DNA of 64,000 nucleotides from Steroidobacter denitrificans (lineage in GTDB: Bacteria; Pseudomonadota; Gammaproteobacteria; Steroidobacterales; Steroidobacteraceae), in contig NZ_CP011971.1 in NCBI RefSeq assembly GCF_001579945.1, positions 682,001 through 746,000 on the forward strand, written 5' to 3'. Shown piece by piece: positions 30,987-48,426 of this stretch. The notes under the pieces are model-generated. The model was not told where the DNA came from. It worked only from the letters and a program-made list of their open reading frames with translations, and did not search any database. Numbering within the stretch: the stretch's first letter is position 1; the number at the start of each line of letters is the position of its first letter. A program made the translations under genes and the position numbers.

Positions 30987-32021
30987 TCACGAAGCCGCGG
31001 CCCGGGGGCGGGTCAGCGCAACCGCAAGGGCGATGAGCGCGAACCATGCGAGGGCGGCCCAGCCGATCACGCCGTCATAGCTGCCGACGAGGGCGGAGAA
31101 GCGGGTTTCCTCGAGCGTCGTATCGGCGCGCAGCACGGCAATGACACAGACCCCGGCCGCGTGCAGACCGATGCAGGCGCCAATGGCTCCCGTGCGCCAG
31201 CGCACCAGCGCCAGCAGAATGCCCAGCATCGTCAGCGCAAGAAAGGAGTCGATGAAGGTCAGCGGATCCGCATAGTGCTCGAACAGCTGGCCCAGGACGG
31301 TGAATCCATGCAACCAGGAAACCTCGTCATTCGGGATGCGCAGCTTGCCGCCCAGGAAATGCAGGAACGCATACAGCAGGCTGGGTGCGAGGATCGCAGC
31401 GACGATGCCGGAGCCGCGCGCCGCTGCGTTGGCGGATCGAGTGCTGCTCTGCTCGAAACTACCCTGGGTTGTGCCGTCCCGCTCATGGGTTTTGCCTGCC
31501 GCGCCTTCGGATTCACGGCAGGCAAAACCCATGAGCGGGACGGCATGGCGGTCGTCTGGCGATTCTCCGATATTGCCGCCGGGCGACAGGGCCGTGAACA
31601 GAATGCCGCGAAAGAAGGTTTCCTCGATCAGCGCCACGATCAGCCCTGAAACGATGCCGCCTGCGATCAGCGCCGGCAGTGTCTGCGCGAAGCCCTCCTT
31701 CAGCGTCCGCACCTCGAGTCCGAGCAGCAATGCGACCAGCGGCGCCATCAGTACGACGCCGCCCAGCCACCCGATCGCCAACTGGCCCATGAATTCGCGC
31801 CGAGGCAGGCCGTAGCCCATCGCCGTGCGATTGGCCAGTCCCAACCGGCGTGTCAGCATCACCAGACCGATCAGTGCGAACAGCATCGCCAGCCGGTTCA
31901 TGACTCGATGGACGGGCTCGACGGAAATGGTGCCGACCAGGAGCCATGCCGGATAGGTGAGGGCCGCGGCTAGAATCAGGGATGCGGTGAGCAGGACTAC
32001 GAACAGGAGGAATGTGCGCAT
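30987..32021 (-). CDS. CPBP-family intramembrane metalloprotease with in-frame palindromic insertion
   Basis: This multi-pass membrane protein (344 residues) belongs to the CPBP (Abi/CAAX-like) family. The catalytic pair Glu133-Glu134 lies in ALIEETFFRGILF, and the second motif LLYAFLHFLGG has His221. A third motif, CIGLHAAG, follows near residue 287. Between the first two motifs this protein has about 50 extra hydrophilic residues (about 149-203). Residues 159-184 of these are encoded by a perfect palindrome (31472-31545). The insertion keeps the frame, so the protein may still fold. The ATG at 32021 starts at the first membrane helix. The substrate is unknown. Confidence 0.82.
   Translation of the reverse strand: MRTFLLFVVLLTASLILAAALTYPAWLLVGTISVEPVHRVMNRLAMLFALIGLVMLTRRLGLANRTAMGYGLPRREFMGQLAIGWLGGVVLMAPLVALLLGLEVRTLKEGFAQTLPALIAGGIVSGLIVALIEETFFRGILFTALSPGGNIGESPDDRHAVPLMGFACRESEGAAGKTHERDGTTQGSFEQSSTRSANAAARGSGIVAAILAPSLLYAFLHFLGGKLRIPNDEVSWLHGFTVLGQLFEHYADPLTFIDSFLALTMLGILLALVRWRTGAIGACIGLHAAGVCVIAVLRADTTLEETRFSALVGSYDGVIGWAALAWFALIALAVALTRPRAAAS
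31472..31545. repeat. Palindromic element A, 30-bp perfect arms, inside the CPBP gene
   Basis: The arms 31472-31501 and 31516-31545 are perfectly complementary over 30 bp with a 14-nt loop. The outer 17 nt (TGCCGTCCCGCTCATGG) and the loop core GCCTTCGGATT are shared with element B at 47308-47384, but the inner stem sequence is not. It is translated on the minus strand as part of the protease. Confidence 0.95.
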
Positions 32022-32388
32022 GTGGCGACCGGGATTTCTTGTTGGAATTCCTTGAAAGTCACGGCGGCTTGCCGCGTCCGGCGCCCGCAGGGCCGGAGGC
32101 CGCATGCGACCGGCTCGACGGTGAAAACCCTAGCATGAATCAGCGCGGTCCGCGCCAGGCGCTCGTTCATGGTCTCGATCGGGGTAAATGAAAGCCCTCC
32201 ATCCGGACGTGTCACTCGTTAAAATGGTCGGCACAGCGCTTTGCTGCCCCAATTTTGTGGCGTTCTTCGTGGAGTGCCGCGCTGATCCATGGTTTGATGG
32301 GCTTCATGCTTCGACAGAACAGAGTTGACGGAAATTCGTCATCTATGGCTCCTGCGCCAGGACGACCGTCTTGAGCGGGGGCAGTTGA
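32022..32388. other. Divergent intergenic region
   Basis: About 370 bp lie between the CPBP protease (leftward) and the GT7-like gene (rightward). No coding frame here looks real and no clear promoter pair stands out. Several short GC-rich inverted repeats are present without T runs. Confidence 0.45.
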
Positions 32389-33282
32389 GTGCCGCAGAGT
32401 ACGCTGTCGGCAGCGCAGCGCTGGTTCAATCGGCTGTGGCCGAGTACGCGCCTGGGACACGACCCTCTGGGCGACTGGTGCGTGCAAGGACGCTACGTCC
32501 CCGTCAGCATCGCGAATTGGAAGCTGACGTTCATGATGCGCCGCCGGGTGCTCGAATGCCGCGTGGCGCAACCGCTTTCGTTCACATCCACCCAGCGGCT
32601 GACAATCGTCATCCCGTTTCGCGACCGGGAAACCCATCTGCGTCAATTGCTGCCGATACTGGTACCCATGCTGCGCGAACAGGGTATTCGCTACCGGATC
32701 GTCGTGGTCGAGCAGGAGCGCGGGCAACTGTTCAATCGAGGCAGGCTCATCAACGCCGGGATACGTTTCACGGCCGAGGCAACCGATTATTATTGCCTGC
32801 ACGACGTGGACGCGCTGCCCCTGGTCGCGAACTACGCCTGTCCTTCCCAGCCGCTGCGTCTGGTCAGATGGATTGCCGATCACCGGGCGGATCCGCCTGC
32901 CGATGCTCAGCGATCGCAACATTATTTCTCCGGTGCGGTGTCCATCCGCAAGGATCAGGTATTCGCGGCCAACGGCTATTCGAACGATTACTGGGGATGG
33001 GGCGGGGAAGACGACGATTTCTTTTTTCGTCTGCTGCTGCAGGGGATGTTGTGCTACTACGACACGCAGGGACGATTTCTCGACCTGCCCAATCCAGCGC
33101 ACCAGCAGGTGCGCAGAGATGCTCGGACCGTACCGTCCCATTGGAAGCATAACCGCCGGCGTCGCAGTCGCCTGGTGCGAGGATTGTTGGATCCCGCCCA
33201 GGATGGGCTGAGCACGCTACGCTATGAAGTCATCGATCATCGGGGTCATGGCGATCACGAAAGGCTACGCGTTCGCTGGTAG
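32389..33282 (+). CDS. Beta-1,4-galactosyltransferase-like glycosyltransferase (GT7)
   Basis: This 297-residue enzyme has the GT7 motifs known best from animal beta-4-galactosyltransferases. They are TIVIPFRDRETHLRQLLP, FNRGRLINAGI, the metal-site HDVDALPL and the acceptor/catalytic motif GYSNDYWGWGGEDDDFFFR. It should transfer a galactose-type residue from a UDP-sugar. There is no membrane anchor or signal, so it is probably cytoplasmic, acting on a lipid-linked glycan or LPS. The start is a GTG at 32389 with a G-rich ribosome binding site (GCGGGGGCAG). Genes for FkbM, Wzi and a GT32-like enzyme follow. Confidence 0.85.
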   Translation: MPQSTLSAAQRWFNRLWPSTRLGHDPLGDWCVQGRYVPVSIANWKLTFMMRRRVLECRVAQPLSFTSTQRLTIVIPFRDRETHLRQLLPILVPMLREQGIRYRIVVVEQERGQLFNRGRLINAGIRFTAEATDYYCLHDVDALPLVANYACPSQPLRLVRWIADHRADPPADAQRSQHYFSGAVSIRKDQVFAANGYSNDYWGWGGEDDDFFFRLLLQGMLCYYDTQGRFLDLPNPAHQQVRRDARTVPSHWKHNRRRRSRLVRGLLDPAQDGLSTLRYEVIDHRGHGDHERLRVRW

Positions 33283-33288
33283 GATCCT

Positions 33289-33975
33289 TCAGGAAGGCCG
33301 CCAGGCAATGGTATCGATGCCTTCCGCGGCGACACGGTAGCCGTTTGCGGCGAATCGCGCAGCGTGCGCCGCTCGCTCGACGCCGGTCATGTTCTTGTGC
33401 TCGAACTTGACGAGGGTGGGAAGGAATCGGGCGAAGTCGATCATGTGCAGGATGGCGGAATCGTAACCCTCGGTATCGATCTGCAATAGGACTGCGTCCA
33501 GCATTCCGGTACGCTCGAGCAGTTCCATCAGCGGTACGCAGTGCACCTCTTCCTCGATCACATCGGCCGGCCGAATGCCGTGTCTGATCAGATGGTCGCG
33601 ATCGAACGAGGCGATACCATTGGCCCAGCCCGGATAACGCGGCATCGCCGAAGGGGCGACGCGAAAGATCGGCAATACGCCGGCTGTCGTGTGAATGGCC
33701 CGATTGACAGGCACGATTTGCGGGTAATCGGCATAATTCATCCGCAACCGCCCGAACATGTCGGGCAAGGGTTCGACCACGATGCCGGCGCACGAATGTT
33801 CCGTTACGAATGAATACAGCCCATCGAAACGCACGCCGTCGTTGGCGCCGATCTGTACGAACTTGAGCCCTTGTGGTGCGCCGCGCACCAGCGTATCGAG
33901 CTGGCGTTGAAACCGGGAGATACGCTCGATGCGGTAGCCGGCCGGGCGCAGCAGACGATTCAGCAGCTTTCTCAT
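33289..33975 (-). CDS. FkbM-family methyltransferase
   Basis: This 228-residue SAM-dependent methyltransferase has the FkbM pattern: LKFVQIGANDGVRFDGLY, GIVVEPLPDMFGRLRMNY, VLLQIDTEGYDSAILHMIDF and LVKFEHKNM. Such enzymes often O-methylate sugars in surface glycans. It is convergent with the GT7-like gene and divergent from wzi, with only 18 bp between the two starts. Confidence 0.9.
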   Translation of the reverse strand: MRKLLNRLLRPAGYRIERISRFQRQLDTLVRGAPQGLKFVQIGANDGVRFDGLYSFVTEHSCAGIVVEPLPDMFGRLRMNYADYPQIVPVNRAIHTTAGVLPIFRVAPSAMPRYPGWANGIASFDRDHLIRHGIRPADVIEEEVHCVPLMELLERTGMLDAVLLQIDTEGYDSAILHMIDFARFLPTLVKFEHKNMTGVERAAHAARFAANGYRVAAEGIDTIAWRPS

Positions 33976-33993
33976 GGCTTTTGGTAACTGATC

Positions 33994-35976
33994 ATGAAGG
34001 GTAGGTTCTTGAACGGAAGGATACCGCGCATCTTGATCGTTTCGTTGCTCGTTCTCGTGGCGCAGCCTCCCGGCTGGGCCCGGGGCGTCAGCCCCTATCT
34101 GCCGCTCAATCTTTCGCCGGAGATTGAACGGCAGATCGAGCGGGTATTGATCCTCGCCGACAAGTCGGTAATGTCTCGTCCCATTCCTGCGGCGGTGGTG
34201 CTCGACGCGTTGCCCGCCGCTTGTCGTGTCGATGAAGTGCTGTGTCGCCGCGTTCGGCGCTACCTAGACCGCTACATGCAGCAGGCCGGGATTTCGCAGG
34301 CGAGCGCAGAGATTGCCGCGACCGATGGCGTGGCGACACCGTTGCCAAACCGGCGTGGCCTGCTCAGCGACAGCGCCTGGCAGGTATCCGCGCAAGCCTA
34401 TTGGCAGCCCCGCGATCATGTGCTGTTGAACCTGGGTGGCGTGGCTCATGAAGACGACGCCACGCCCACCGGCTCGATACTGAGCCTCGGCTTCGATTTC
34501 GCGCAACTCGACATCGGCTATCGCGATCATTGGTTCTCGCCCTTTGCGCATGGCGCAATGATCATCAGTACGCAGGCGCGCACCCTGCCGTCCGTGACCT
34601 TGTCGAACTATCGCCCGATCAGCCGATTGGGGTTGCAGTACGAGGTATTCCTGGCGGAAATGGCGCATTCCGACCGGATTCGATTCGAAGACGGTTTCAC
34701 GGCCGGCAACCCCCGGCTGGCGGGACTGCGATTTTCCATCGAGCCTGCGGCCGGCTGGTCGCTGGGCGCGAACCGCATGATGCAGTTCGGTGGCGGCGCG
34801 CGCGGTGGCCGGTCCGTCGGCGATTTCTTCGACGCCTTGTTCAAGCCGCACCAGAACGACAACCGCAGTGACACCTTGAGCCAGGAACAGGAGTTCGGCA
34901 ATCAGGTGGCGGCCTGGACCAGCCGGTTCATCTTCCCGGGATCGATTCCGTTCACCGTCTATCTGGAATATGCCGGCGAAGACAACTCATATGGAGGCGA
35001 TTTCCGGCTGGGTAACGCGGCATTGTCGATGGGTATCACATTTCCCCGGTTGTGGCGTCGGTTCGATTTGTCCTATGAGACGTCGGAATGGCAGAACGGT
35101 TGGTACGTGCATGGCATTTATGCCGATGGTCTGACGGAGGACGGACGCGTGCTGGGGCATTGGGGTGCTGATGCACGCGCTCCAGGCGATGCCGTCGGCG
35201 CACAGTCGCACATGCTGCGCCTGGGTTGGGAGCCGCGTTTCGGCGGCCTGATGCAGCTGCGAATGCGTACCATTGCCAACGAGTCCTACGGCAGCGTCGA
35301 TTACGAACGCGGCTATGAGGCGGGCTTGAGTTACAGCCGTACGCTGCGGGGCTTGACGGCGGGCGCGGAGATCCTGGCGGGACGCGACGTCTTTGGCGAC
35401 GACTACGGCCGGCTGGCGGGATTCGTCCGCTTCGGTGATGAATGGGCCGACGGCGGGAGTGCCGCCTGGCTGGATGACGTCAGCCGTCCGCGGGGCGCGG
35501 AATTGTTCGTCGATGCGGGAGTCAACCTCAGTCGAGCGACGATCTTCCCCGGGGACGGTAGTCCGCGGCACACGACATCGGATGAAGTCGCGCCGCATAT
35601 CGGGCTCGGTGCGCGCCGCGCCGTCTCGGATCGCAGTGATCTGGGCGTGCGAGTGGAGTTCGATCGTATCGACGGTGAGGCGTTGCTGGCGGTCCGGGCG
35701 TTGGACTACCGCTATCGTTTCCGCAATCCGCTGGCGTTTTCATTGTTCATCGGCGCGGCGCGCTATGAGCTGGCGACTCCGGCCTACGGCTATTACCTGG
35801 GTGCCGGCGTGCAATGGCGGGACATCCTGCCGCAATTCGATTTGGGCCTGGACTGGCGTTATGCCGACAAGGTAGCGCGAGACAAGCTGCTGGCCTCGGA
35901 TCCGGCCATCGATCCCAGGCCGGACATCTTCTATGACATCAGCGGCTGGAGTTTGTCCCTGAGTCGTCGCTTCTGA
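33994..35976 (+). CDS. Wzi-family capsule assembly outer-membrane protein
   Basis: The 660-residue protein has a signal peptide (RILIVSLLVLVAQPPGWARG), a helical periplasmic part (about 40-100) and a long beta-barrel domain. The segments QLDIGYRDHWFSPF and GNPRLAGLRFSIEPAAG resemble the Wzi family, which holds capsule polysaccharide at the cell surface. The C-terminal strand ends in Phe (LSLSRRF), as usual for barrel insertion. Its 3' end overlaps the convergent glycosyltransferase gene by 38 bp. No wza/wzc/wzx genes are in the window. Confidence 0.87.
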   Translation: MKGRFLNGRIPRILIVSLLVLVAQPPGWARGVSPYLPLNLSPEIERQIERVLILADKSVMSRPIPAAVVLDALPAACRVDEVLCRRVRRYLDRYMQQAGISQASAEIAATDGVATPLPNRRGLLSDSAWQVSAQAYWQPRDHVLLNLGGVAHEDDATPTGSILSLGFDFAQLDIGYRDHWFSPFAHGAMIISTQARTLPSVTLSNYRPISRLGLQYEVFLAEMAHSDRIRFEDGFTAGNPRLAGLRFSIEPAAGWSLGANRMMQFGGGARGGRSVGDFFDALFKPHQNDNRSDTLSQEQEFGNQVAAWTSRFIFPGSIPFTVYLEYAGEDNSYGGDFRLGNAALSMGITFPRLWRRFDLSYETSEWQNGWYVHGIYADGLTEDGRVLGHWGADARAPGDAVGAQSHMLRLGWEPRFGGLMQLRMRTIANESYGSVDYERGYEAGLSYSRTLRGLTAGAEILAGRDVFGDDYGRLAGFVRFGDEWADGGSAAWLDDVSRPRGAELFVDAGVNLSRATIFPGDGSPRHTTSDEVAPHIGLGARRAVSDRSDLGVRVEFDRIDGEALLAVRALDYRYRFRNPLAFSLFIGAARYELATPAYGYYLGAGVQWRDILPQFDLGLDWRYADKVARDKLLASDPAIDPRPDIFYDISGWSLSLSRRF

Positions 35977-36796
35977 GATATCGTGCGCATAGTCGCTCGA
36001 ATAGCGAGTCGCCGGGGAAGGGTGCATTCTTGTCGAAACCGCGTGCTCGGCGCGTCATCTCATTCCACAAATGAAGCGCAGAACTCGCTTGCGTCAGCAT
36101 CGGGTTGTCTCGCAGGCTGTCGTCGAAGATCGTGTGCCAGTTCTGATAATGCACCGGATAGAAGTGCCAGAAGGGCAAGGCCAGATTTTCGTACCCTAGA
36201 TGACGTACGGCATGCGTGAAACCACGCGGGCCGAATTCTCCCCAACGAATGTGCGGGCGAGTGTCGCCGGGCCGCAGGCGCCGCAGCAGCTTGCGACGTT
36301 TCATGCGTCCGCTGTCGTACGATAGCCAGCGGTTGGGATGATCCCAGCACTCGAGCATCCAGGCCGCGAGCTCGTGGCCGGCGGGCAGCCCGAGTACGGC
36401 CACGTTGATCGTCGTCAGAGTCTCCCAGGCGAACAGCTCCGCTCGCCCATAGTTCAATGGCTTGAGGCAGACGACGTCCGTATCGGCCCAGATGCCGCCC
36501 TGACGGTACAGCAGCCGGAAGCGGAACCAGTCCGCGAACGCCGCCACCGAGTTGTGGCGTTTGTCGCGAAACAGGTATTTTTGCGCCAGGGTCTCGGCGG
36601 CATCGACGAGCGTCACTCCGGGCGGCACGTTCTTCGGTGGTTCGTACGTATGCAGCAGCAGCGTATGCCCATTCGCCATGAACGAGTTCATGCACAGGCG
36701 CTCCAGGCGCGAAAGCCATGAGCCATGCCAGAACATGTGCACCGCCGGCAGTTTCTCGCGGGGTGTCGTCTGAGCGGCCATCGATGAGGCGCTCAT
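35939..36796 (-). CDS. GT32-like glycosyltransferase (DXD sugar-binding family)
   Basis: This 285-residue enzyme has the DXD-containing segment LLYRQGGIWADTDVVCLKPL typical of GT32 and alpha-1,4-galactosyltransferase-like proteins. AFADWFRFRLL precedes it and MFWHGSWLSRLERLC lies at the N terminus. It should use a nucleotide sugar and Mn2+. The ATG at 36796 overlaps the stop codon of the preceding methyltransferase gene as ATGA, which fixes the start. Donor and acceptor are unknown; the context implies surface glycan synthesis. Confidence 0.85.
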   Translation of the reverse strand: MSASSMAAQTTPREKLPAVHMFWHGSWLSRLERLCMNSFMANGHTLLLHTYEPPKNVPPGVTLVDAAETLAQKYLFRDKRHNSVAAFADWFRFRLLYRQGGIWADTDVVCLKPLNYGRAELFAWETLTTINVAVLGLPAGHELAAWMLECWDHPNRWLSYDSGRMKRRKLLRRLRPGDTRPHIRWGEFGPRGFTHAVRHLGYENLALPFWHFYPVHYQNWHTIFDDSLRDNPMLTQASSALHLWNEMTRRARGFDKNAPFPGDSLFERLCARYLRSDDSGTNSSR

Positions 36797-37740
36797 GCGG
36801 GCGCTCGCTCGAAAACGGCCACGACCGCGTGTCCAATCGGCCGCAGCACAGGGTTGCGCAATGCGGGGCGCAAGAGCGCAGCGCCGATCTTCGCTCCGCG
36901 GCGCACCAGCCAGCCGCGCAGCCGCGGATCCAGCAGGTGGGGTTCCGGCCCACTGCGTAAGGCCATGCCGTATTCGGCGACGATGCGCGCGTACCAACTC
37001 ACGTGGGAGTCGGCCAGCGGTTCGTGTTCGATCGTCACCACGCTCAGCCCGAGCTGGCGAGCTGCGTTGCGGAGACTCAGATCCGACCAGCGCGTGACAT
37101 GATGCGGTGGCATGTTGAGGATATCCCAGAAATCGATATTCGCGAACGAATCCTCGCTGGGCACGGCCAGGAGCAATCGTCCACCGCTGCGCAGGCAGTC
37201 ACGCGCGCTTTCGAGGAAGGAGCACACCTGAGGCACATGCTCCAGCACCTGGAAGGCGCAGACAACGTCATACTCGCCTACATGCCGACTCGCGTGAGTC
37301 TGCAGATCCTCCTGCAGCAGCCGTACACCCTCGCGTGCGGCGATCTCGATGGCATCGGGACTTGTTTCCAAGCCCAGATAGGAGGCGCAGCGCACGTGGC
37401 GGGAGAACGCGCCCTTGCCGGCGCCCACTTCCAGTACCTGGTCCTCGGGACGAATGTGGTGTGCCGCGATATCGTACTCCGCCTTCTGTTCGCGGTAGTA
37501 CCAGGGGATGGCCTGCAGTTGTCGATAGAAGTCGGCGTCACCCGCGGCTAGCGGCTCGAAGAAGCGCAGATCGCAGGCGGTACAGTGCAGGTAATCGATG
37601 CGCTCGACATCCATCCGGATGTGTATCTTGAAGGATCGCAGATATTCTTCGCGCAGTACGGCAGCATCGAGGGTCGCAAGCCGGATGCTGCGCGCGTGCG
37701 CGCACAACGGGCAGCGCGTCGCCTCCTCTACGGCGTTCAT
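36793..37740 (-). CDS. Class I SAM-dependent methyltransferase with N-terminal zinc-ribbon-like cysteines
   Basis: This 315-residue protein starts with a Cys-pair motif (CPLCAH and, further on, [13 protein letters not shown]), as in methyltransferases acting on sugars or lipid-linked intermediates. The SAM motif is [17 protein letters not shown], followed by [14 protein letters not shown] and [15 protein letters not shown]. The ATG at 37740 overlaps the hemL stop codon as ATGA. It is therefore coupled to hemL upstream and to the GT32-like gene downstream. A role in glycan methylation is inferred from context. Confidence 0.85.
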
Positions 37741-39011
37741 GCCGTATTCATGCACTGCAGCGCGGCTTGCGCGGCGCGAACGGTTTCGGCGATGTGCTCC
37801 TGCGTGTGGGCGATCGAGACGAACCCCGCTTCGAACGCCGAGGGCGCAAGATATACACCCTCGCGCAGCATGGCATGGAAAAAGCGCCGGAATCGGTCCG
37901 CATCGCTGGCCATGACCTCGGTGAAGCTGCGCGGTGCGCGCTCGGTGAAGAACAGTCCGAACATGCCGCACACATGGTTGGTGCTGAACGCGACGCCGGC
38001 ATCGCGGGCGGCCTCGGCGAGGCCTTCCACGAGCTGAGTGGTCGTCTGGGCGAGACGGGTGTGGAAGTCGGGCTCGCCGATCAGTTCCAGGGTCTTCAGG
38101 CCCGCGGCCATGGCGACCGGGTTGCCCGACAGGGTGCCTGCCTGGTAGACCGGACCCAGCGGGGCGATCTGTTCCATGATGTCGCGGCGTCCGCCGAAGG
38201 CGCCGACCGGCATGCCGCCGCCGACGATCTTGCCCAGCGTGGTCAGGTCGGGTTTGATGCCGTACAGCGCCTGCGCTCCGCCCAGCGCCACCCGAAAACC
38301 GGTCATCACTTCGTCAAAAATCAGGACGCTGCCGTGCTGGTCGCAGACCGAGCGCAGTGTTTCCAGGAATCCGGGCGCGGGCGGCACGCAGTTCATGTTG
38401 CCGGCGACGGGTTCGACGATGATGCAGGCGATCTGCCCGCCCACGGCATCGAACACCTGCTTCACTTCGGCGGCATCGTTGTAGGCGAGCGTAAGTGTCT
38501 GCGCCGCGAGTTCCTTGGGGACACCCGGTGAGGTGGGTACGCCGAAGGTCAGCGCGCCGGATCCCGCCTTCACCAGCAGGGAGTCCGAGTGACCGTGATA
38601 GCAGCCTGCGAATTTCACGATCTTGTCGCGGCCGGTATAGCCGCGTGCCAGGCGAATCGCGCTCATGGTCGCTTCGGTGCCGGAGCTGACCATGCGCACC
38701 AGTTCGATCGACGGCATCAGCTCACCGATCTTGCGTGCCAACTGCGTTTCGATCCGGGTAGGCGCGCCGAACGACAAGCCCAGAGCCGCACGTTCTTGTA
38801 CCGTCCGGATGACCTCTGGGTGCGCATGACCGAGAATCATCGGTCCCCAGGAGCCTACATAATCGATGTAGCTGCGGCCGTGCTCATCATGGATCAGCGC
38901 GCCGCCGGCACGCTCGATGAAGATCGGCTCGCCGCCGACGGCCCGGAAGGCGCGTACCGGGGAATTCACGCCGCCGGGAATATGGCGAGCGGCATCGGTG
39001 AATGAAGACAA
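37737..39011 (-). CDS. hemL: Glutamate-1-semialdehyde 2,1-aminomutase
   Basis: HemL converts glutamate-1-semialdehyde to 5-aminolevulinate in the C5 haem pathway. The 424-residue PLP enzyme begins [13 protein letters not shown]. It contains [11 protein letters not shown] and the PLP lysine in [19 protein letters not shown]. The length is typical. The following methyltransferase and glycosyltransferase genes are coupled by 4-nt overlaps, which is an unusual partnership for a haem gene. Confidence 0.97.
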
Positions 39012-39203
39012 GGCCGTAACTCCTGGGCGTGGCCGTCATGATGGGCGCTGCGCGGACGCCGGGTCCGGTCGCAGGGTCGTGCAAAAACACTGGGCGCCAA
39101 GTGTAAGCGGGACGATGCCGAGGCGCATCCTCCAGGAGTGCTGCGTCCCGATCGCGGCATTCGCAAGCAAGATATCGAGGCGATCGAGGTGTGAGAGACC
39201 GGC

Positions 39204-40199
39204 TCAGTGTCGTTGCAGCACGTGGCCCCTGCTGCGCAATAACGCCACGACGCTCTCCGGCCCGACCAGATGCAGCGCGCCGACGATCACTAGATAGTCC
39301 TGTTCGTCCTCCAGCAGCGCCTCGATGTCCGTCACCCAACGGTGATTGCGTTCGATCGTGAGAGGCCGGTAGAGCTCGGGATAGGCTGCGAAGCCTTCCG
39401 CCAACAGGCGCTCCAAGGTCTGGATGTCCCCCTGGCGCCAGGCCGATAGCAATTCGTCAAGATCGCGATCCATGCGCTCGAAGTCTGCGACGCTGTACAT
39501 CAGAAATTCGATCTGCAGTGTCTCGGGCAGATTAGCAAGATAGCTCAGCTGCTGCCGCAGGGTCTCCAGACCCGTGACGGGCTTTTGATCCCGCCGCGCC
39601 CGAGCCGCCAGGCGTTGCTCTATGCCGGCTCGAGACTCCAACCCCCTTCTGGCAAAATGCTGCTGAATCAGGGTCATGGCAGCCAGCCAGGGACGCAGAG
39701 GGTTCAGCAGTGCCGGATCCAGCTCTAGTTCCCGGGCGGCTGTGGCGACGGCTGCATGAGCCTGCGGCCCCAATTGCTGCTCGAGCGAGCGGCCAGGCGG
39801 CAGCAGACCCAGCTCCAGCAGGCTCTGCTGCATGTCCTGGAGGTCGAGGTTGCCTATGTCGATTTCCATGACGAGTCTGTCGGCTTGGGCGTAGGCGGCT
39901 TCGATGGCTGCAGGTAGCGGCTCATCCGGCGGCAGGAAATGGATCGACCCCAACAGATAGAGGGTGTTGCGCCGGCCTTTTACCGACCACAATGTATGCT
40001 GCGGCTCATGCTCTGCATGTCTGGATGCAGCCGGGGCACTGGCGTGGGCCAGGGCGTGGTGCGGAAAGGTCGCGATCCGCATCGTGACTTCAGGAGCCGG
40101 CATCGGCAGTGCCGGATGCGCCATGGCGCCACGCGGCATCGGAATGGCGGCCAGCAGCCACAAAAATACGAGCGTGGCGCACAGGTCAGCTACTTTCAT
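39204..40199 (-). CDS. TraB/GumN family protein
   Basis: The 331-residue protein has a signal peptide (LCATLVFLWLLAAIPMPRGA), so it is periplasmic or surface-anchored. The TraB/GumN domain is marked by TLYLLGSIHFLPPDE at its start, the paired Glu/Asp in RLVMEIDIGNL, and DYLVIVGALHLVGPESVVALL at the end. The family has been linked to metal-dependent peptidase-like activity, but the function is not settled. The ATG at 40199 gives the signal peptide directly. The cpdA-type gene lies upstream on the same strand. Confidence 0.88.
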   Translation of the reverse strand: MKVADLCATLVFLWLLAAIPMPRGAMAHPALPMPAPEVTMRIATFPHHALAHASAPAASRHAEHEPQHTLWSVKGRRNTLYLLGSIHFLPPDEPLPAAIEAAYAQADRLVMEIDIGNLDLQDMQQSLLELGLLPPGRSLEQQLGPQAHAAVATAARELELDPALLNPLRPWLAAMTLIQQHFARRGLESRAGIEQRLAARARRDQKPVTGLETLRQQLSYLANLPETLQIEFLMYSVADFERMDRDLDELLSAWRQGDIQTLERLLAEGFAAYPELYRPLTIERNHRWVTDIEALLEDEQDYLVIVGALHLVGPESVVALLRSRGHVLQRH

Positions 40200-40301
40200 G
40201 CCGACCACTATAAGGGATGAATAGCGCCGGAGGATGGGCGGCGCAGGCGGGCCGGCGTCCGTGCCGCAGGATGGCGGCGGCTCCAAGTCAGACCGGATCG
40301 A

Positions 40302-41108
40302 TCAGGCGGCGTTGCTTCGGGCCGCGTCTTCCAGCCAGCAGACTTCGGTGGCGATCGTGCCGTCCGGCATCAGTTCCAGCAGGCGATAGCCGGGCGGGCG
40401 GTCGTCGATCGAAAAGTCGGGGCTGCCGGGCAGGAACTGGGCGCAGGTCGACGGTGAGGCCATGAATCGCACGCCGCCTATGAAATGGTCCAGGGACTGG
40501 TGCACATGGCCCCACAGGACACCACGAACATTAGTGTGCTTGCGTACCAGGGCCAGAAACTCGTCCGCATCGCTCAGACCGACTTGATCCAGCCAGTTGC
40601 TGTGCATTCGGATCGGATGATGATGCAGGCAGAGCAGGACGTGATCCTGGTCCGGTAAGTGCAACAGGCTGTCCAGGGCGGTGAGCTGCTGTTTACCCAG
40701 GCGTCCACCGGCCTGATGCGCCACCTGGGAATCCAGCATGACAACCCGCCAGGGTCCGAATGCCTGGTGTCCGCCGAGCTGAAACGGCGCCTGCGCCAAG
40801 GCCGTACGCATCGGGCCGGGGAGGTCGTGATTGCCGGCCAGGCACAGTACGGGTACCGGTGAGTCCGCGAACAGCTCGCGGATCCAGCGATAACCTTGCG
40901 GATCGTCCTGGACCAGATCGCCGGTCAGCAGGATCCCGTCGGGTCGCGGGCAGCGCCGGCGTGCATCGGCCAAAGCAGCCTGCAGCGAGGGCAGTGAGGC
41001 AATCCCGCGCAGGCGTGCCGCATCATCGCCGAAAAGGTGCATGTCGGTGAATTGCAGAAGGCGGACGGAAGGCATCTTGACGGATATTTCCTTGAGTCGG
41101 GAGGACAT
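40302..41108 (-). CDS. cpdA: 3',5'-cyclic-AMP phosphodiesterase
   Basis: CpdA hydrolyses cAMP and so tunes CRP-type regulation. The 268-residue protein has the full set of metallophosphoesterase motifs: FTDMHLFG, LLTGDLVQDD, LAGNHDLPGP, CLHHHPIRM and LWGHVHQSLDH. The ATG at 41108 is chosen; a TTG upstream would add six residues. Related metallophosphoesterases exist, so CpdA is a strong but not certain call. Confidence 0.88.
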   Translation of the reverse strand: MSSRLKEISVKMPSVRLLQFTDMHLFGDDAARLRGIASLPSLQAALADARRRCPRPDGILLTGDLVQDDPQGYRWIRELFADSPVPVLCLAGNHDLPGPMRTALAQAPFQLGGHQAFGPWRVVMLDSQVAHQAGGRLGKQQLTALDSLLHLPDQDHVLLCLHHHPIRMHSNWLDQVGLSDADEFLALVRKHTNVRGVLWGHVHQSLDHFIGGVRFMASPSTCAQFLPGSPDFSIDDRPPGYRLLELMPDGTIATEVCWLEDAARSNAA

Positions 41109-41526
41109 GTGCAGCCATCCTAGCAATCACAAATGCGTCAAAAAGTGACCGAGGTCCGGTCGGTCGTACCGGCGAGCGGTGGCGCATGAAATTCTTGCAT
41201 TCGGTCTCATTACATAGTCGTTTTACCAGCCGTTTTACTTATGTCTGCACGGATGCCGGGGGTGGAAAACGGTATGGATTTCCGCATTTTTGCAAGCTGC
41301 CAGCTAAACGCACCCCAAAACGTATCCCAAAACGTATTCTTGAGAGCGTGGTTCCGGAACGCGACAGGAACTCGATACAACTCGGACTGCGAATGGCGCA
41401 TATCGATCGTGGTTTGCCGAGAGTTCACGGGATTCCGCCGGAGGCCGCATTGCTCGGCTTCGCCCCTTAGTCCAAAATGCGCGGCCTTCACCGCGTTTTT
41501 CGACCTAACCCTAGAGTATTTTCCTG
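41109..41526. other. Leader/intergenic region upstream of tkt
   Basis: About 418 bp lie between cpdA (leftward) and tkt (rightward). It includes an AT-richer part (41185-41350) and a 12-bp exact tandem duplication (CCCAAAACGTAT at 41314-41325 and 41326-41337). A short hairpin followed by a T run lies near 41480-41500. An open frame at 41186-41470 has no recognisable similarity and its repeats come from the tandem DNA, so I do not call it a gene. Confidence 0.5.
41480..41500 (+). terminator. Possible attenuator or terminator before tkt
   Basis: A 5-bp all-GC stem (41480-41484 with 41491-41495, 6-nt loop) is followed at once by TTTTT (41496-41500), 27 nt before the tkt start. It could be an attenuator in the leader or a coincidence. 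Confidence 0.35.
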
Positions 41527-43527
41527 ATGCAGATTTCCCGTCGTCGGCAGCTTGCCAACGCCGTCCGTGTTTTGGCGATGGATGCGGTTCAGAAGGCCAA
41601 TTCCGGACATCCGGGCATGCCGATGGGAATGGCCGATATCGCCGAGGTGCTCTGGAACGACCATCTGCGACATAATCCGGGCGATCCGCAATGGTGGGAT
41701 CGCGATCGGTTCGTGCTGTCCAACGGACATGGCTCGATGCTGCTGTACGCCCTGCTTCATCTGAGCGGCTATCCCCTGACCCTGGATGATTTGCGCGCAT
41801 TTCGCCAGTTGGGTTCCCACACGGCGGGACATCCCGAGCATGATCCGCAACGAGGGATTGAAACCACCACGGGCCCGCTGGGCCAGGGCCTCGCCAATGC
41901 CGTGGGCATGGCATTGGCGGAGAAAATGTTGGCGGCAAGCTTCAATCGTCCTGGTTTCGATCTGGTGGATCATCATACCTGGGTGTTTCTCGGCGATGGC
42001 TGTCTCATGGAGGGCATTTCTCACGAGGCCTGTTCTCTGGCCGGCACGCTGCAACTGGGCAAGCTGATTGCGTTCTACGACGACAATGGCATCTCGATAG
42101 ATGGCCAGGTGCAAGGCTGGTTCACCGACGATACGCCGCGACGTTTCGAGGCCTATGGCTGGCACGTCGTACCGAATGTCGATGGCCATGATCCTGCTGC
42201 GATCGAAGCCGCCATCGTTGCGGCAAAGCAGCAGGATCGGCCCAGCCTGATCTGCTGCCGGACGATCATCGGCTACGGTGCACCCAACAAACAGGGTACC
42301 GAGGCCACCCATGGCGCCGCGCTGGGCGTCGAGGAGGTCGCAGCGGCCCGTCAGAAACTAGGCTGGGTCTGGGAGCCTTTCGTGATTCCGGAAGACATCC
42401 GCAGCGGCTGGGATGCCCGCGAGCGCGGTGCGCGGCGCCAGGCACAATGGAACGATTTGTTTGCCCGCTACAAGCTTGCATTTCCCGGCCCGGCTGCGGA
42501 GTTCGAACGGCGCATGCGCGGCGAACTGCCTGACGGCTGGAGTGCGGTGGTCGAGGAATATGTGGCACAGGTGGCTCAGTCCGGCGGCAGTCTGGCGACG
42601 CGCCAGTCCTCGCAACAGGCGCTCAACGCCTATGGTCCGGTGTTGCCCGAGCTGTTTGGCGGCTCGGCCGACTTGACCGGCTCCAACAATACGAATCGCA
42701 AGGATTCCCGCGCCGTCACCGGCGAGGATGCAAGCGGCAATTACCTGCACTACGGCGTGCGTGAGTTCGGCATGTCGGCCATGATGAACGGTATCGCCCT
42801 GCATGGCGGACTGATTCCGTACGGCGGCACCTTCCTGGTTTTTTCGGACTATGCACGCAATGCCATGCGCATGTCCGCGCTCATGAAGCAGCGCGTCATC
42901 TATGTCATGACACACGACTCCATCGGCCTGGGCGAGGATGGACCGACACACCAGCCGGTGGAGCACCTGCCCAGCCTGCGCCTGATTCCCAACATGACGC
43001 TGTGGCGTCCCTGCGACGGCACGGAAACTGCCGTGGCCTGGGCGGCGGCAATCGAGTGGCGTGATGGGCCCAGTTGCCTGGCTCTATCCAGGCAGGGCTT
43101 GCCCGCACAGCCGCGCAGCGCTGAGCAATTGGCCAATATCAAGCGCGGCGGCTATGTCCTGCAGGACTGCAAGGGTATGGCGCAGGTCATATTGATCGCT
43201 ACGGGCTCCGAGGTCGCTCTGGCGCTGGAGGCCGCACGGCAGCTGACCCAGGACGGCAAGAGAGTGCGGGTCGTATCGATGCCCAGCGTCTGCGTGTTCG
43301 AAAGGCAGGACGAAGCCTATCGAGAGCAGGTATTGCCTGGCGGTGTGGAATGTCGCGTGGCCATCGAGGCGGCAGTACCGGATACCTGGTGGCGCTATGT
43401 CGGACTACGCGGCGCGGTCATCGGTATGACGAGTTTCGGCGCTTCCGGAACGGCGCAGGATCTGTTCAGGCACTTCGGATTCACCACGGAGTGCGTGGTG
43501 CGCAGGGTGACCGAACTGTTGGCATGA
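41527..43527 (+). CDS. tkt: Transketolase
   Basis: Transketolase moves two-carbon units between sugar phosphates in the pentose phosphate (or Calvin) pathway, using thiamine diphosphate. The 666-residue protein has the N-terminal signature [20 protein letters not shown], the ThDP motif [20 protein letters not shown] and the C-terminal motif [19 protein letters not shown]. It is the first gene of a tkt-gap-pgk-pyk run. Confidence 0.97.
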
Positions 43528-43552
43528 GTGTGAATCTTTCGAGGAAATGAGA

Positions 43553-44566
43553 ATGCCCATCAAAGTTGGAATCAATGGCTACGGTCGCATCGGTCGCAAT
43601 GTGCTGCGTGCTTTATACGAGGCCGGGCGCCAGAACGAAATCCGGATCGTGGCACTCAATGATCTGGGTGATGCGGGAACCAATGCACATCTGACGCAAT
43701 ACGATACCGCTCATGGCAGGTTCGGCGGCGAGGTCCGGGTGGAAGGTGATTCGATGCTCGTCAACGGCGATCGCATCCGTGTTCTGGCTGAGCGTGATCC
43801 GGCCAAGCTGCCCTGGGGTGAGTTGGGGGTGGATGTCGTGCTCGAATGCACGGGCTTGTTTACCAGCAAGGCGAAGGCCGCAGCTCATCTGACGGGTGGT
43901 GCGAAGAAGGTGCTGCTTTCCGCGCCGGGCGGCAAGGACGTCGATGCGACCATCGTCTATGGCGTCAATCACGAGCTGCTGAAGTCCAGCTATACTGTCG
44001 TGTCCAACGCATCCTGCACGACCAATTGCCTGGCGCCGGTTGCCAAGGTATTGAACGAGTCGATCGGCATCGTGTCGGGCATCATGACGACGATTCACGC
44101 ATATACGAACGACCAGGTGTTGACGGATGTCTATCATTCCGATCTGCGTCGCGCGCGTTCCGCCACGATGTCGATGATTCCGACTAAAACCGGCGCTGCA
44201 GCAGCCGTCGGTCTGGTCCTGCCGGAACTCGATGGCAAGCTCGACGGTTTTGCCGTACGGGTGCCGACGATCAATGTTTCGCTGGTGGATTTGACCTTCG
44301 TCGCGAAGCGTGCAACCAGCGTTGCGGAAATCAACGAGGCGATGCGTGCAGCCGCCACGGGACCGCTCAAGGGGGTCCTGGCCTATACCGATGCGCCGCT
44401 GGTGTCGATCGATTTCAACCATGATGCGCATTCCTCCACCTATGATGCGACCCTGACCAAGGTGATGGACGGCACTCTGGTAAAAGTATGCTCCTGGTAC
44501 GATAACGAATGGGGATTCTCGAACCGCATGCTGGATACCACGGCAGCGTGGTCGAAGGCCGGATAG
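43553..44566 (+). CDS. gap: Type I glyceraldehyde-3-phosphate dehydrogenase
   Basis: Gap interconverts glyceraldehyde 3-phosphate and 1,3-bisphosphoglycerate. The 337-residue protein starts [19 protein letters not shown] and has the active-site Cys155 in [32 protein letters not shown] near residue 34 resembles the Gap proteins of proteobacterial cbb operons. GAGG 8 nt before the ATG at 43553 decides against the ATG at 43547. The coenzyme is probably NAD (Asp in the NDLGD position), as an inference. Confidence 0.97.
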
Positions 44567-44578
44567 GAGGAATTCTCG

Positions 44579-45754
44579 ATGCCCATCCTTCGCATGACTG
44601 ATCTCGATCTGCGCGGCAAGCGGGTGTTGATCCGCGAGGATCTCAACGTGCCAGTGCAAGGCGGAAAAGTCAGCAGTGACGCCCGGATTCGTGCGGCGCT
44701 GCCGACGATCCAGTCAGCTAAGGACGCCGGTGCCCGCGTGCTGGTGATGTCTCATCTCGGCCGTCCGGAGGAAGGTGTCTATGACGAGGAATTCTCGCTC
44801 GCTCCGGTTGCTCGGCGCCTGGGGGAGTTACTCGGCTTCAAGGTGCGTTTCGAGAAGGATTGGCTGGATGGCGTAGAGTGTGCTGATGGGGAGGTCGTAC
44901 TGCTCGAGAATGTGCGATTCAACAGGGGTGAAAAGCGCGACAGTGACGATCTGGCACGCAGGATGGCCGCTTTGTGCGACGTCTATGTGATGGATGCCTT
45001 CGGTACTGCGCATCGTGCCGAGGCGAGTACGCATGGTGTGGCGCGTCACGCGAAAGTGGCCTGTGCCGGTCCGCTGCTGATGAACGAACTGATCGCGCTG
45101 GAGACTGCGCTGGAAAAACCGAAGCGGCCACTGATCGCCATCGTGGCCGGTTCGAAGGTGTCCAGCAAGCTGACGTTGCTGGAAAGCCTGCTGGGCAAGG
45201 TGGACAGATTGATCGTCGGCGGAGGCATTGCCAATACGTTTCTTGCCGCACAAGGCATCAATATCGGCAAGTCGCTGGTCGAAGCGGAGATGATCGATAT
45301 CGCCAAGGGATTGCTGAAACTTGCGCACGAACGTTCTGCGGATATCCCCTTGCCGACGGACGTGGTCGTTGCCGAGGAGTTTGCCGCTACCGCCGAGGCG
45401 GACGTCAAGGCGGTCGATACGGTGGCAGCCGATGAAATGATTCTGGATATCGGACCGGATACGGCGGAGCGTTTTGCGCGCATGCTGAATGATGCGGGTA
45501 CGATCGTCTGGAACGGCCCGGTCGGGGTGTTCGAGTTCGATCAGTTCGGCGAAGGTACGCGGGTGATTGCTCAGGCCATTGCTCGTAGCCCGGCTTTCTC
45601 GATCGCCGGCGGCGGCGATACGCTTGCTGCCATCGAGAAGTATCGGGTCGAAGGCGATATTTCCTATATTTCCACCGGCGGCGGTGCCTTCCTGGAGTTC
45701 TTGGAGGGCAAGAAACTGCCGGCGGTCGCGATTCTCGAAAAACGAGCGAGTTAG
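44579..45754 (+). CDS. pgk: Phosphoglycerate kinase
   Basis: Pgk interconverts 1,3-bisphosphoglycerate/ADP and 3-phosphoglycerate/ATP. The 391-residue protein contains [46 protein letters not shown] and the nucleotide-site motif [17 protein letters not shown] strong AGGAGG ribosome binding site lies before the ATG. It sits 12 bp after gap and 7 bp before pyk. Confidence 0.97.
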
Positions 45755-45761
45755 CCTACGA

Positions 45762-47195
45762 ATGCTGCGCCGAACCAAGATTCTGACGACGCTCGGCCCG
45801 GCAAGTGATGATCCGAAGGTACTCGCGGACTTGCTGCGCGCGGGCGCTGACGTCGTACGAATCAATTTTTCCCATGGTGAACCCCAGGCGCATGTGGAAC
45901 GCGTGAAGCGGGTCCGCGAGATCGCCGGCCAGGTCGGCAAGCTGGTCGCCATTCTGGGCGATCTGCAGGGACCGAAAATTCGCATCGAGCGCTTTGCCGC
46001 GGGACGGGTATTCCTGAATGAGGGCGATCCCTTCACGCTCGATGTCTCGCTCGATGCGAAATCGGGAACGGAGAAAGCCGTCGGCGTGGCCTACAAGGGC
46101 CTTCCTCGCGATGTCGCCGCCGGTGATCTGCTGCTGCTCAATGACGGCCAGATCGTTCTGGAAATCAACGAAGTCGATGGTCCACGCATCCATACCCGGG
46201 TCATCACTGGCGGTGAATTATCCGATAACAAGGGTATCAACAAGCAGGGGGGCGGTCTTTCGGCCGGTGCGCTGACCGACAAGGATCGCGCCGACATCAA
46301 GCTGGCCGCAGAGTTGGGGGTGGACTATCTCGCGGTTTCATTTGCCCGCGACGGCGATGACATGGAAGAGGCCCGTGGCTTGCTGCGCCGGGCGGGTGGT
46401 CATGGTTTCCTGGTGGCAAAGATCGAGCGCAGCGAGGCGCTGGCCAACTTGGAGCGCATCATTCTGGCCAGCGACGCCGTCATGGTGGCGCGCGGCGATC
46501 TGGGAGTGGAAGTCGGCAACGCCGAGTTGACCGGCTTGCAGAAACACATCATTGCAGTGACCCGCAAACTCAACCGCGTGGCGATCACGGCGACGCAGAT
46601 GATGGAATCGATGATCCACAATCCGATTCCGACTAGAGCGGAAGTATCGGATGTCGCCAATGCGGTGATGGATGGGACGGATGCGGTCATGCTTTCGGGC
46701 GAAAGCGCTGTCGGCAAGTATCCCGTCAAGGCGGTCGAGGCGATGGCGCAGGTCATTCTGGGGGCCGAGAAATACGAATCCTTGCACTCGCCTGTACGCC
46801 ACCGAGGCGGTGACAATCTTCTCGAGAAGACCGACCAGGCGATTGCGATGGCAGTGATGTACACGGCCAATTATCTAAAAGTAAAAGCGATCGTCGCCTT
46901 GACGGAATCGGGTTCCACACCGCTGTGGATGTCGCGCATCCGGACCGATATTCCGATCTATGCCTTCACTCGCCATGAAGAGACACGTCGTCGGGTGCTG
47001 TTGTACCGTGGGGTGTATCCGGTGTCCTTCGATATCACCCACACCAACGTCCAGGCCGCTTACACCGATATTTTTCGGCTGATGCTGCGCGAGAAGATGG
47101 TCGAGGAGGGAGATCGCATCATTCTTACGAAGGGTGAGTTGACGGGGGTGGCGGGGAAGACGAACGCAATGAAGATATTGGAGGTTCGCGCCTAG
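45762..47195 (+). CDS. pyk: Pyruvate kinase
   Basis: This 477-residue enzyme makes pyruvate and ATP from phosphoenolpyruvate and ADP. RRTKILTTLGPASDD and VVRINFSHGEPQAH mark the N-terminal barrel. MVARGDLGVEVGN and RVAITATQMMESMI are the active-site segments. The ATG at 45762 was chosen because the longer open frame overlaps pgk. With a PPi-dependent phosphofructokinase elsewhere in the window, pyruvate kinase is the main ATP-yielding irreversible step visible. Confidence 0.97.
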   Translation: MLRRTKILTTLGPASDDPKVLADLLRAGADVVRINFSHGEPQAHVERVKRVREIAGQVGKLVAILGDLQGPKIRIERFAAGRVFLNEGDPFTLDVSLDAKSGTEKAVGVAYKGLPRDVAAGDLLLLNDGQIVLEINEVDGPRIHTRVITGGELSDNKGINKQGGGLSAGALTDKDRADIKLAAELGVDYLAVSFARDGDDMEEARGLLRRAGGHGFLVAKIERSEALANLERIILASDAVMVARGDLGVEVGNAELTGLQKHIIAVTRKLNRVAITATQMMESMIHNPIPTRAEVSDVANAVMDGTDAVMLSGESAVGKYPVKAVEAMAQVILGAEKYESLHSPVRHRGGDNLLEKTDQAIAMAVMYTANYLKVKAIVALTESGSTPLWMSRIRTDIPIYAFTRHEETRRRVLLYRGVYPVSFDITHTNVQAAYTDIFRLMLREKMVEEGDRIILTKGELTGVAGKTNAMKILEVRA

Positions 47196-47201
47196 CGTAT
47201 T

Positions 47202-47230
47202 GCCTGGCGTATCGCCAGGCGCATTTATAT
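47202..47230 (+). terminator. Likely terminator after pyk
   Basis: A perfect 8-bp stem (47202-47209 with 47213-47220, 3-nt loop) is followed by GCATTTATATTTG, a T-rich but interrupted tail. It lies 7 bp after the pyk stop codon. Confidence 0.55.
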
Positions 47231-47307
47231 TTGACACCCGCCGGTCACGTAACGCGCTCGTCTTCGCGATCGGAGCGGATTCGTGATGCTTTGCTGGCCA
47301 AATGCAA

Positions 47308-47384
47308 TGCCGCCCCGCTCATGGTCTTTGTCGTCGTGCCTCAAATCCGAAGGCACGACGACAAAGACCATGAGCGGGGCGGCA
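47308..47384. repeat. Palindromic element B, 34-bp perfect arms
   Basis: The arms 47308-47341 and 47351-47384 are perfectly complementary over 34 bp with a 9-nt loop. The outer 17 nt differ from element A at one position, and the loop core (GCCTTCGGATT read on the minus strand) is shared, while the inner stem is unrelated. It lies between pyk and the MoxR gene. Confidence 0.95.
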
Positions 47385-47510
47385 CGAAGGTACGGCAGCG
47401 AGGCCATGAGCGGGGCGGCACGAAGGTACGGCAGCGAGGCCATGAGCGGGGCGGCACGAAGGTACGGCAGCGAGGTCATGGGCGGGGACGGAAGGCACGG
47501 AAGCGATGAC
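47368..47510. repeat. 36-bp tandem repeat, three exact copies plus degenerate copies
   Basis: Exact units occupy 47368-47403, 47404-47439 and 47440-47475; diverged copies follow to about 47510. Each unit begins with the outer right arm of palindrome B (CCATGAGCGGGGCGGCA) followed by a 19-nt spacer. The direct contact suggests the repeat grew out of the palindrome end. Confidence 0.93.
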
Positions 47511-47574: not shown

Positions 47575-48426
47575 ATGACTGCACGATTCCAGGGTACTGA
47601 TAACTACGTTGCCACCGAGGACCTGATGATGGCCGTGAATGCGGCTGTGGTCCTGGGGCGGCCCTTGCTCGTGAAAGGCGAGCCGGGCACCGGCAAAACC
47701 CAGCTGGCCGAAGAGGTGGCCCGTGCGTTGGATCGCCCGTTGCATCGCTGGCATATCAAGTCGACGACCAAGGCGCAGCAGGGGCTGTACGAGTACGATG
47801 CCGTGTCGCGACTGCGCGATTCGCAACTGGGTGACGCCAAGGTTCACGATATCGGCAACTACATCGTCAAAGGCCGCTTGTGGGAGGCTTTCGAAAGCGA
47901 GGTACAGCCGGTATTGCTCGTGGACGAGATCGATAAGGCGGATATCGAGTTTCCGAACGATCTGCTGCATGAGCTGGACCGCATGGAATTCTTCGTCTAC
48001 GAGACGCGTCAATGGGTCAAGGCGCGCCAGCGTCCGATCATCGTCATTACCAGCAACAACGAAAAGGAACTGCCGGATGCGTTCCTGCGTCGCTGCTTTT
48101 TTCACTACATCCGCTTTCCGGATCACGCCACGATGGAACGGATCGTTGCGGTGCATTATCCGACGCTCAAGCGCGAACTGCTCGCCGAGGCGCTCACGGC
48201 GTTTTATCGAATCCGTGACATGGCCGGTCTGAAAAAGAAGCCTTCCACCTCGGAGCTGCTGGACTGGATCAAGCTGCTGCTGGCAGAGGACATCCCGCCG
48301 GAGGCCTTGCGAGGCGATGACCTGAAGAAGGCGATCCCGCCCTTGCACGGCGCCTTGCTGAAGAACGAGCAGGACGTGCACTTGTTCGAGCAATTGGTAT
48401 TTCTGCATCGGCGCCAGGGGCGTTAA
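47575..48426 (+). CDS. MoxR-family AAA+ ATPase
   Basis: This 283-residue AAA+ ATPase has Walker A GEPGTGKTQLAEEVARAL, Walker B LLVDEIDKADIEFPNDLL, sensor-1 ITSNNEKELPDAFLRRCFF and the usual C-terminal lid. MoxR-type ATPases act as chaperones, often with a VWA-domain partner. Here that partner is the next gene, 21 bp downstream. The client protein is unknown. Confidence 0.92.
   Translation: MTARFQGTDNYVATEDLMMAVNAAVVLGRPLLVKGEPGTGKTQLAEEVARALDRPLHRWHIKSTTKAQQGLYEYDAVSRLRDSQLGDAKVHDIGNYIVKGRLWEAFESEVQPVLLVDEIDKADIEFPNDLLHELDRMEFFVYETRQWVKARQRPIIVITSNNEKELPDAFLRRCFFHYIRFPDHATMERIVAVHYPTLKRELLAEALTAFYRIRDMAGLKKKPSTSELLDWIKLLLAEDIPPEALRGDDLKKAIPPLHGALLKNEQDVHLFEQLVFLHRRQGR

What the first reader, a model, noticed from the sequence alone, without database searches (positions are those of the whole stretch)
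31472..47384. Element family with fixed ends and loop but variable, fully complementary stems
Elements A (31472-31545) and B (47308-47384) share 16 of 17 outer arm bases and the loop core GCCTTCGGATT, yet the middle of the stem is unrelated while staying perfectly self-complementary in each. Chance or simple decay cannot give this. Either stem structure is selected (as RNA or DNA cruciform) or the elements are made by a copying mechanism that forces perfect arms. No transposase is nearby, so they would depend on factors elsewhere. This is the best candidate here for an undescribed system.
Basis: seen in the sequence. Interest (0 to 1): 0.8.

Follow-up and report, generated by a model that had tools for sequence, protein, structure and literature searches.

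The report
Bacterial hairpin repeats with self-matching arms
The two hairpins belong to a family of about 55 small, apparently mobile DNA repeats found so far in one bacterium, whose two arms change together as if one arm is repeatedly copied from the other; the kind of element is known, but this family looks new.

Summary
A (31472-31545, 30-nt arms) and B (47308-47384, 34-nt arms) are perfect hairpins sharing ends and loop core. One detail is wrong: the stem middles are not unrelated (8 of 12 aligned columns identical).

They are two of at least 55 copies in this 3.47-Mb genome. A covariance model found none in 216 other genomes of the family or 395 of the order (overlapping sets, capped scoring); an earlier model gave one weak hit in 39 nearer relatives.

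A's hairpin lies inside a 165-bp in-frame insertion in a CPBP-protease gene. All 9 same-genus homologues aligned lack it, so the inserted unit exceeds the hairpin.

Arms match within a copy (median 96%) far better than between copies (56%); 24 of 26 stem pairs show double changes. Mismatches are not richer in G-T than A-C, against RNA selection. Loops occur in both orientations relative to homologous flanks.

Arm homogenisation plus spacer inversion is the published footprint of DNA template switching. Best reading: an undescribed family of miniature palindromic repeats, organised like REPINs/REP dimers, with arms kept matched at DNA level. It fails REP tests (no REP hairpin or tag in the ends, no ends beside either Y1-transposase gene). 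The mobilising enzyme is unknown.

The parts
31472..31545 (.). Element A, palindrome: 30-nt perfect arms, 14-nt loop (loop core GCCTTCGGATT on +)
31419..31583 (-). Whole insertion that carries element A: 165 bp (55 codons, no stop) absent from 9 aligned same-genus homologues; edges uncertain by a few codons
30987..32105 (-). CPBP (Rce1-like, PF02517) protease gene that holds A in frame; start may be 32021
47308..47384 (.). Element B, palindrome: 34-nt perfect arms, 9-nt loop (loop core on -), between pyruvate kinase and a MoxR-like AAA gene
47368..47487 (+). 36-bp tandem array, 3.3 copies, that repeats the outer 3' arm of B (CCATGAGCGGGGCGGCA) plus 19 bp
45762..47195 (+). Pyruvate kinase gene upstream of B (neighbour, not part of the element)
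47575..48426 (+). AAA (MoxR-like) ATPase gene downstream of B (neighbour, not part of the element)

Best explanation
A and B are copies of a lineage-restricted family of miniature palindromic repeats. SHOWN: at least 55 copies; hairpin core of about 70 nt; copy A was gained as a 165-bp insertion; arms change together; loops are found in both orientations relative to homologous flanks. INFERRED: the copies spread as non-autonomous mobile DNA, mainly surviving between genes and downstream of stop codons; and the arms stay matched because, when the hairpin forms in single-stranded DNA at replication, the polymerase switches template and copies one arm from the other (which also flips the loop), not because RNA pairing is selected. 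UNKNOWN: the enzyme that moves them; a Y1 (HUH) transposase acting in trans is possible but has no direct support here.
For: Family: 55 places in own genome with R2, 53 with R1. Insertion: in 11 of 13 other genus genomes the homologous protein matches as two abutting pieces missing about residues 175-226; 9 of those 11 aligned, all 9 lack the 55 residues. Full-length copies align into the flanks by about 30-40 nt each side (1728558/2494383; 3320861/3445767). Arms: within-copy identity median 0.963 against 0.556 between copies; middle 0.933 against 0.400. 24 of 26 pairs have double changes, 300 double-change cells against 90 in shuffles, 0 of 500 shuffles reach it. 13 similar pairs that I chose (some copies used more than once): 51 mirrored against 28 one-sided changes. 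DNA not RNA: A-C 36, G-T 22. Loop inversion: 1119068/2657541 and 679108/3237564 have collinear flanks and opposite loops; copies with an unambiguous loop carry the flank motif 5' in 8 and 3' in 10 flanks. Published mechanism giving both signs: PMC8604942 (abstract, introduction); PMC8794818 (abstract).
Against: Movement itself was not seen: the most alike copies still differ, no target duplication was defined, and only one clean empty site (A) exists; B has none, because the gene order after pyk is not kept in relatives. The flank motif was found from hand-picked seeds; a random-start rerun recovered it (34 flanks) against at most 16 and 22 in distal controls, but its one-sidedness is weak (1 or 3 copies with both sides, about 5 expected; P 0.03 for the first). 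Selection on a DNA hairpin would also give matched arms, and inverted-repeat recombination would also flip loops. 35 of 53 copies have at most one core mismatch, but some have 5-6.
Confidence: 0.55

Rival explanations
1. REPIN-like element moved in trans by one of the genome's two Y1 (HUH) transposases as a single-stranded hairpin; arms match because only well-folded single-stranded DNA hairpins are copied. It works like a REPIN although its ends are not REPs.
For: Same plan as described for REPINs (conserved inverted ends, variable spacer, compensatory changes; PMC3116915 passages). Two PF01797 genes, 2317885 and 921702. DNA-level pairing. Intergenic, 3'-biased position as described for REPs (PMC3733652 abstract; here).
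Against: Neither Y1 locus (3.3 kb each) holds the end or loop strings searched; nearest copies are about 6 kb and 27 kb away. Half-ends fold no better than shuffled letters (median -9.3 against -8.9), GTAG near 10 of 106 ends, CGTC 9. Loop inversion is not expected from copying one strand.
Confidence: 0.25
2. The hairpin is selected as RNA (terminator, transcript stabiliser or attenuator) downstream of genes, and stems coevolve by compensatory mutation.
For: 49 of 53 copies lie between called genes; in tandem gene pairs 22 of 28 are nearer the upstream stop than the downstream start, P 0.004. Strong covariation.
Against: G-T mismatches are not more common than A-C on the loop strand (22 against 36) nor on the strand set by the flank motif (10 against 13 in 27 copies). 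No Rfam match over the elements. Loop strand is not fixed relative to the flanks. A sits inside a protein gene.
Confidence: 0.12
3. Unrelated strong hairpins or terminators that share ends by chance or convergence.
For: The end pair also occurs in 6 stretches from other phyla (Chloroflexi MAGs, Nitrosomonas, Streptomyces, Hydrogenedentes); their loops and stems differ from this family.
Against: 9 against 0 control matches; 55 model matches in one genome and none in 216 and 395 others; shared loops and flanks.
Confidence: 0.02

Closest known systems
REPINs (inverted REP doublets forming hairpins; PMC3116915, passages only)
   Same: About 70-100 nt; two inverted conserved ends; variable spacer that keeps hairpin pairing by compensatory changes; intergenic; lineage-specific.
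   Different: No REP palindrome or GTAG tag in the ends; no copy beside a Y1 transposase gene; homologous, non-palindromic flanks of about 30-40 nt travel with the hairpin; loops inverted relative to flanks.
CGTC-tagged REP dimers (PMC3733652, abstract and passages); the name for the repeat seen in relative G008 is my recall of the consensus
   Same: Hairpin dimers, many copies in one species, no dedicated transposase known, mostly downstream of genes, some inside genes.
   Different: The sequence CATTCCCGCGNNNGCGGGAAT is absent from this genome (0) and abundant in G008 (286 sites); our ends do not fold on their own.
Rickettsia palindromic elements (recalled; one search did not return a paper on them; PMC3733652 passages mention RPE-4 and RPE-6)
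   Same: Palindromic repeats found in frame inside protein genes, as A is.
   Different: Here 1 clear case inside a gene and 2 at gene ends among 53; sequence relation not tested.
Quasi-palindrome correction by template switching (PMC8604942, PMC8794818)
   Same: Arm homogenisation and spacer inversion in inverted repeats.
   Different: That is a mutation process at single sites; here its marks appear across a dispersed repeat family.

Membership tests
REPIN / REP dimer | Two inverted conserved ends around a variable, still pairing spacer | tested here: met
REPIN / REP dimer | Each end contains its own short imperfect palindrome (REP) | tested here: not met
   Median fold of 106 half-ends -9.3 against -8.9 shuffled
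REPIN / REP dimer | GTAG or CGTC tag at the ends | tested here: not met
   GTAG near 10 and CGTC near 9 of 106 ends
REPIN / REP dimer | Y1 transposase (RAYT) gene flanked by the repeat | tested here: not met
   Two PF01797 genes; no end or loop string in either 3.3-kb locus. Whether they are RAYTs proper was not tested
REPIN / REP dimer | Single REPs and doublets both common | tested here: inconclusive
   20 half-site strings outside elements among 63 in the loci held, several in tandem arrays or nested beside elements, the rest looking isolated; not a whole-genome count
Classical MITE of a DDE transposon | Terminal inverted repeats shared with an autonomous copy, and target duplication | tested here: inconclusive
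   48 exact 10-nt half-sites listed, no transposon-like facing pair noticed by eye; no target duplication defined at A
Structured RNA family | Pairing kept at RNA level (G-U tolerated on one strand) | tested here: not met
   G-T 22, A-C 36 of 78 mismatches; no Rfam match over elements
Template-switch homogenised inverted repeat | Arm homogenisation and spacer inversion | tested here: met
   a direct before/after event was not seen
Retroelement-made repeat (retron, DGR, group II intron) | Reverse transcriptase in the genome | tested here: not met
   PF00078: 0 matches in own genome, control rings in 3 of 14 genomes

The most novel reading that the evidence does not exclude
A mobile element that is copied from a single arm: an enzyme or replication step turns one hairpin strand into both arms each time a copy is made, so every new copy is born perfectly self-complementary and its loop can land in either orientation. 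Mutations in one arm are then inherited by both, and the family evolves as if it had only half a sequence.
Probability: 0.12. Interest if true: 0.8.

Novelty: new variant of a known kind. Interest (0 to 1): 0.45.

Why it matters
Covariation is usually read as proof of selected RNA structure. Here a family of 53 aligned copies shows very strong covariation with no G-U signature and with inverted loops, as a DNA copying process would give. If confirmed, it is a natural replicate set for measuring how often template switching rewrites hairpins in a bacterium, and a warning for covariation-based RNA discovery. It also shows that, within one genus, different species carry different palindromic repeat families (this one here, a CGTC-type one in G008).

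Tried and rejected
Chance: rejected. Two-copy curiosity: rejected. RNA gene or riboswitch: no Rfam match over elements in the window or in 20 loci (only a 6S RNA and two tRNAs elsewhere in them). Reverse transcriptase route: no PF00078. Phage source: the strict pattern gives 0 in viral contigs. Other phyla: 6 stretches in genome contigs, all six loops and stems unlike ours; the L102 one looks like a terminator. Standalone half-sites as REP units: no support. Local spread: neighbours within 5 kb are more alike (5 pairs, permutation P 0.007), P 0.04 at 15 kb, 0.08 at 50 kb; positions not clustered (P 0.24); kept as a hint only. B's empty site: not available. (profile search of flanks) failed and gave nothing; one search was badly ranged and unusable; both were replaced. 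In one search, 2 of 11 relative loci (L119, L120) dropped out of my script's filter and were not aligned. In one search three copies show low within-arm identity (0.26-0.41); I take these for offset by small indels and kept them in the medians. The genome searches score only part of the first-look candidates (150 of 1808; 22 and 12 per genome), so 55 is a lower bound and absence elsewhere means absence of a large family. The first order-level run and the family run share genomes.

Full report
What is there. The strict end pair occurs at 9 places in the genome and never in the reversed control. A covariance model from those nine found 53 places; a second from the 53 found 55 plus one weak partial hit inside a tandem array. 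Only 150 of 1808 candidates were scored, so 55 is a lower bound.

Where else. With model R1, 39 other relatives gave one weak match, in G002; with R2, 216 other genomes of the family and 395 of the order gave none, under strict filters and with only 22 and 12 candidates scored per genome (the sets overlap). Random stretches of relatives held few long hairpins: G003 0 in 200 kb, G008 1 in 200 kb, G013 0 in 60 kb, G002 3 in 81 kb, where one stretch was picked for the R1 hit. G008 instead has 286 sites of CATTCCCGCGNNNGCGGGAAT, which I recognise from memory as the CGTC/dRS3 type of REP; this genome has none.

What was inserted. A lies in a CPBP protease gene whose Pfam match is stretched (171 residues over 85 model positions). 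In 11 of 13 other genus genomes the protein matches in two abutting pieces that skip about residues 175-226; one more gave a fragment and one nothing. Nine of the eleven were aligned and all nine lack the same 55 residues. The insertion, 31419-31583, is 165 bp, in frame, without a stop, and has the 74-bp palindrome inside it. So the unit is larger than the palindrome. Other copies agree: 1728558/2494383 and 3320861/3445767 align for about 30-40 nt beyond the hairpin on each side, and a motif close to AACCCCGAAATGGTTTTGAGCAA recurs beside the hairpin (33 of 106 flanks from hand-picked seeds; 34 from random starts against at most 16 and 22 in distal controls). It is mostly on one side (31 copies one side, 1 both; 28 and 3 in the rerun), but that sidedness is only weakly beyond chance (P 0.03 for the first count). 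At 122690-122883 one hairpin with 31-nt arms encloses 132 bp that hold another copy.

How the arms behave. Within a copy the arms agree at a median 96% of positions; between copies arms agree at 56% (middle 93% against 40%). On the 53-copy alignment 91.9% of cells pair, 24 of 26 pairs have double changes, and 300 cells have double changes against 90 in shuffles; 0 of 500 shuffles reach any of the observed values, and sliding the partner by one column drops pairing to 40-44%. The tool warns that related sequences can exceed shuffles, and the structure came from the same alignment. In 13 similar pairs that I picked, some sharing copies, 51 stem positions changed on both sides and 28 on one. Core stems: 78 mismatches in 1491 pairs; 18 of 53 cores are perfect, 35 have at most one.

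DNA or RNA. If RNA pairing were selected on one strand, G-U should outnumber A-C there. On the loop strand it is 22 against 36, on the motif strand 10 against 13 in 27 copies. The covariance models tolerate G-U, so the way copies were found does not hide it. The loop also flips: 1119068 and 2657541 have collinear flanks and near-identical stems but opposite loops, as do 679108 and 3237564; 3320861/3445767 also scored as inverted, but that loop is nearly palindromic and I do not count it. Among copies with an unambiguous loop, the motif is on the 5' side in 8 and the 3' side in 10 flanks. Arm homogenisation with spacer inversion is what template switching between inverted-repeat arms is said to do (PMC8604942: abstract and introduction; PMC8794818: abstract). 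Selection on a DNA hairpin plus recombination between arms remains possible.

Where they sit. By my own codon-based gene caller, 49 of 53 copies lie between genes (28 tandem, 14 convergent, 7 divergent), 3 in or at the end of genes and 1 undecided. In tandem pairs 22 of 28 lie nearer the upstream stop (counted; P 0.004). No copy pair is near-identical, so I saw no sign of very recent spread.

Who moves them. Two Y1 transposase genes exist, neither with element strings in its 3.3-kb locus. No reverse transcriptase. No candidate is tied to the family.

Compared with what is known. REPINs (PMC3116915, passages) and GTAG/CGTC REP dimers (PMC3733652, abstract and passages) share the plan, the placement and even compensatory changes. 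Membership fails on the REP palindrome and tag in each end and the flanking transposase. So it works like a REPIN but is not filed as one.

Noticed in passing
window 47368-47487: A 36-bp tandem array (3.3 copies) built from the outer arm of B plus 19 bp, directly beside B.
   Followed up: partly
L006:1340-1570 (genome about 1803000-1803232): 81-bp tandem repeats, each with the left arm and loop of an element; only the last copy has the right arm that completes the hairpin.
   Followed up: partly
L001:1429-1622 (genome 122690-122883): Nested hairpins: perfect 31-nt outer arms enclose 132 bp holding a complete inner element.
   Followed up: partly
L177, just after pyruvate kinase, and L147:12625-12694 (both G008): In relative G008 a different hairpin repeat sits right after pyk, the gene that precedes B here; it belongs to a repeat with 286 exact core sites in that genome.
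   Followed up: partly
L107:1501-1558 (G002): Hairpin with stem GTGCGCCGTG and loop AAAAGG in the same genus, the only R1 match outside this genome; whether it is repeated there was not tested.
   Followed up: no
L109:2176-2300 and upstream of the ORF: The Y1 gene at 921702 is flanked by repeats around AATAAATCTGTCCCCATTTG, perhaps its own recognition repeats.
   Followed up: no
genome 1455927 and 2288031: Copies whose two arms carry clustered mismatches and resemble different family variants, as if one arm had been exchanged.
   Followed up: partly
L104, L105, L103, L101, L102, L106: The same 11-nt end pair occurs as a hairpin in Chloroflexi, Streptomyces, Nitrosomonas and Hydrogenedentes records with unrelated stems and loops.
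   Followed up: partly
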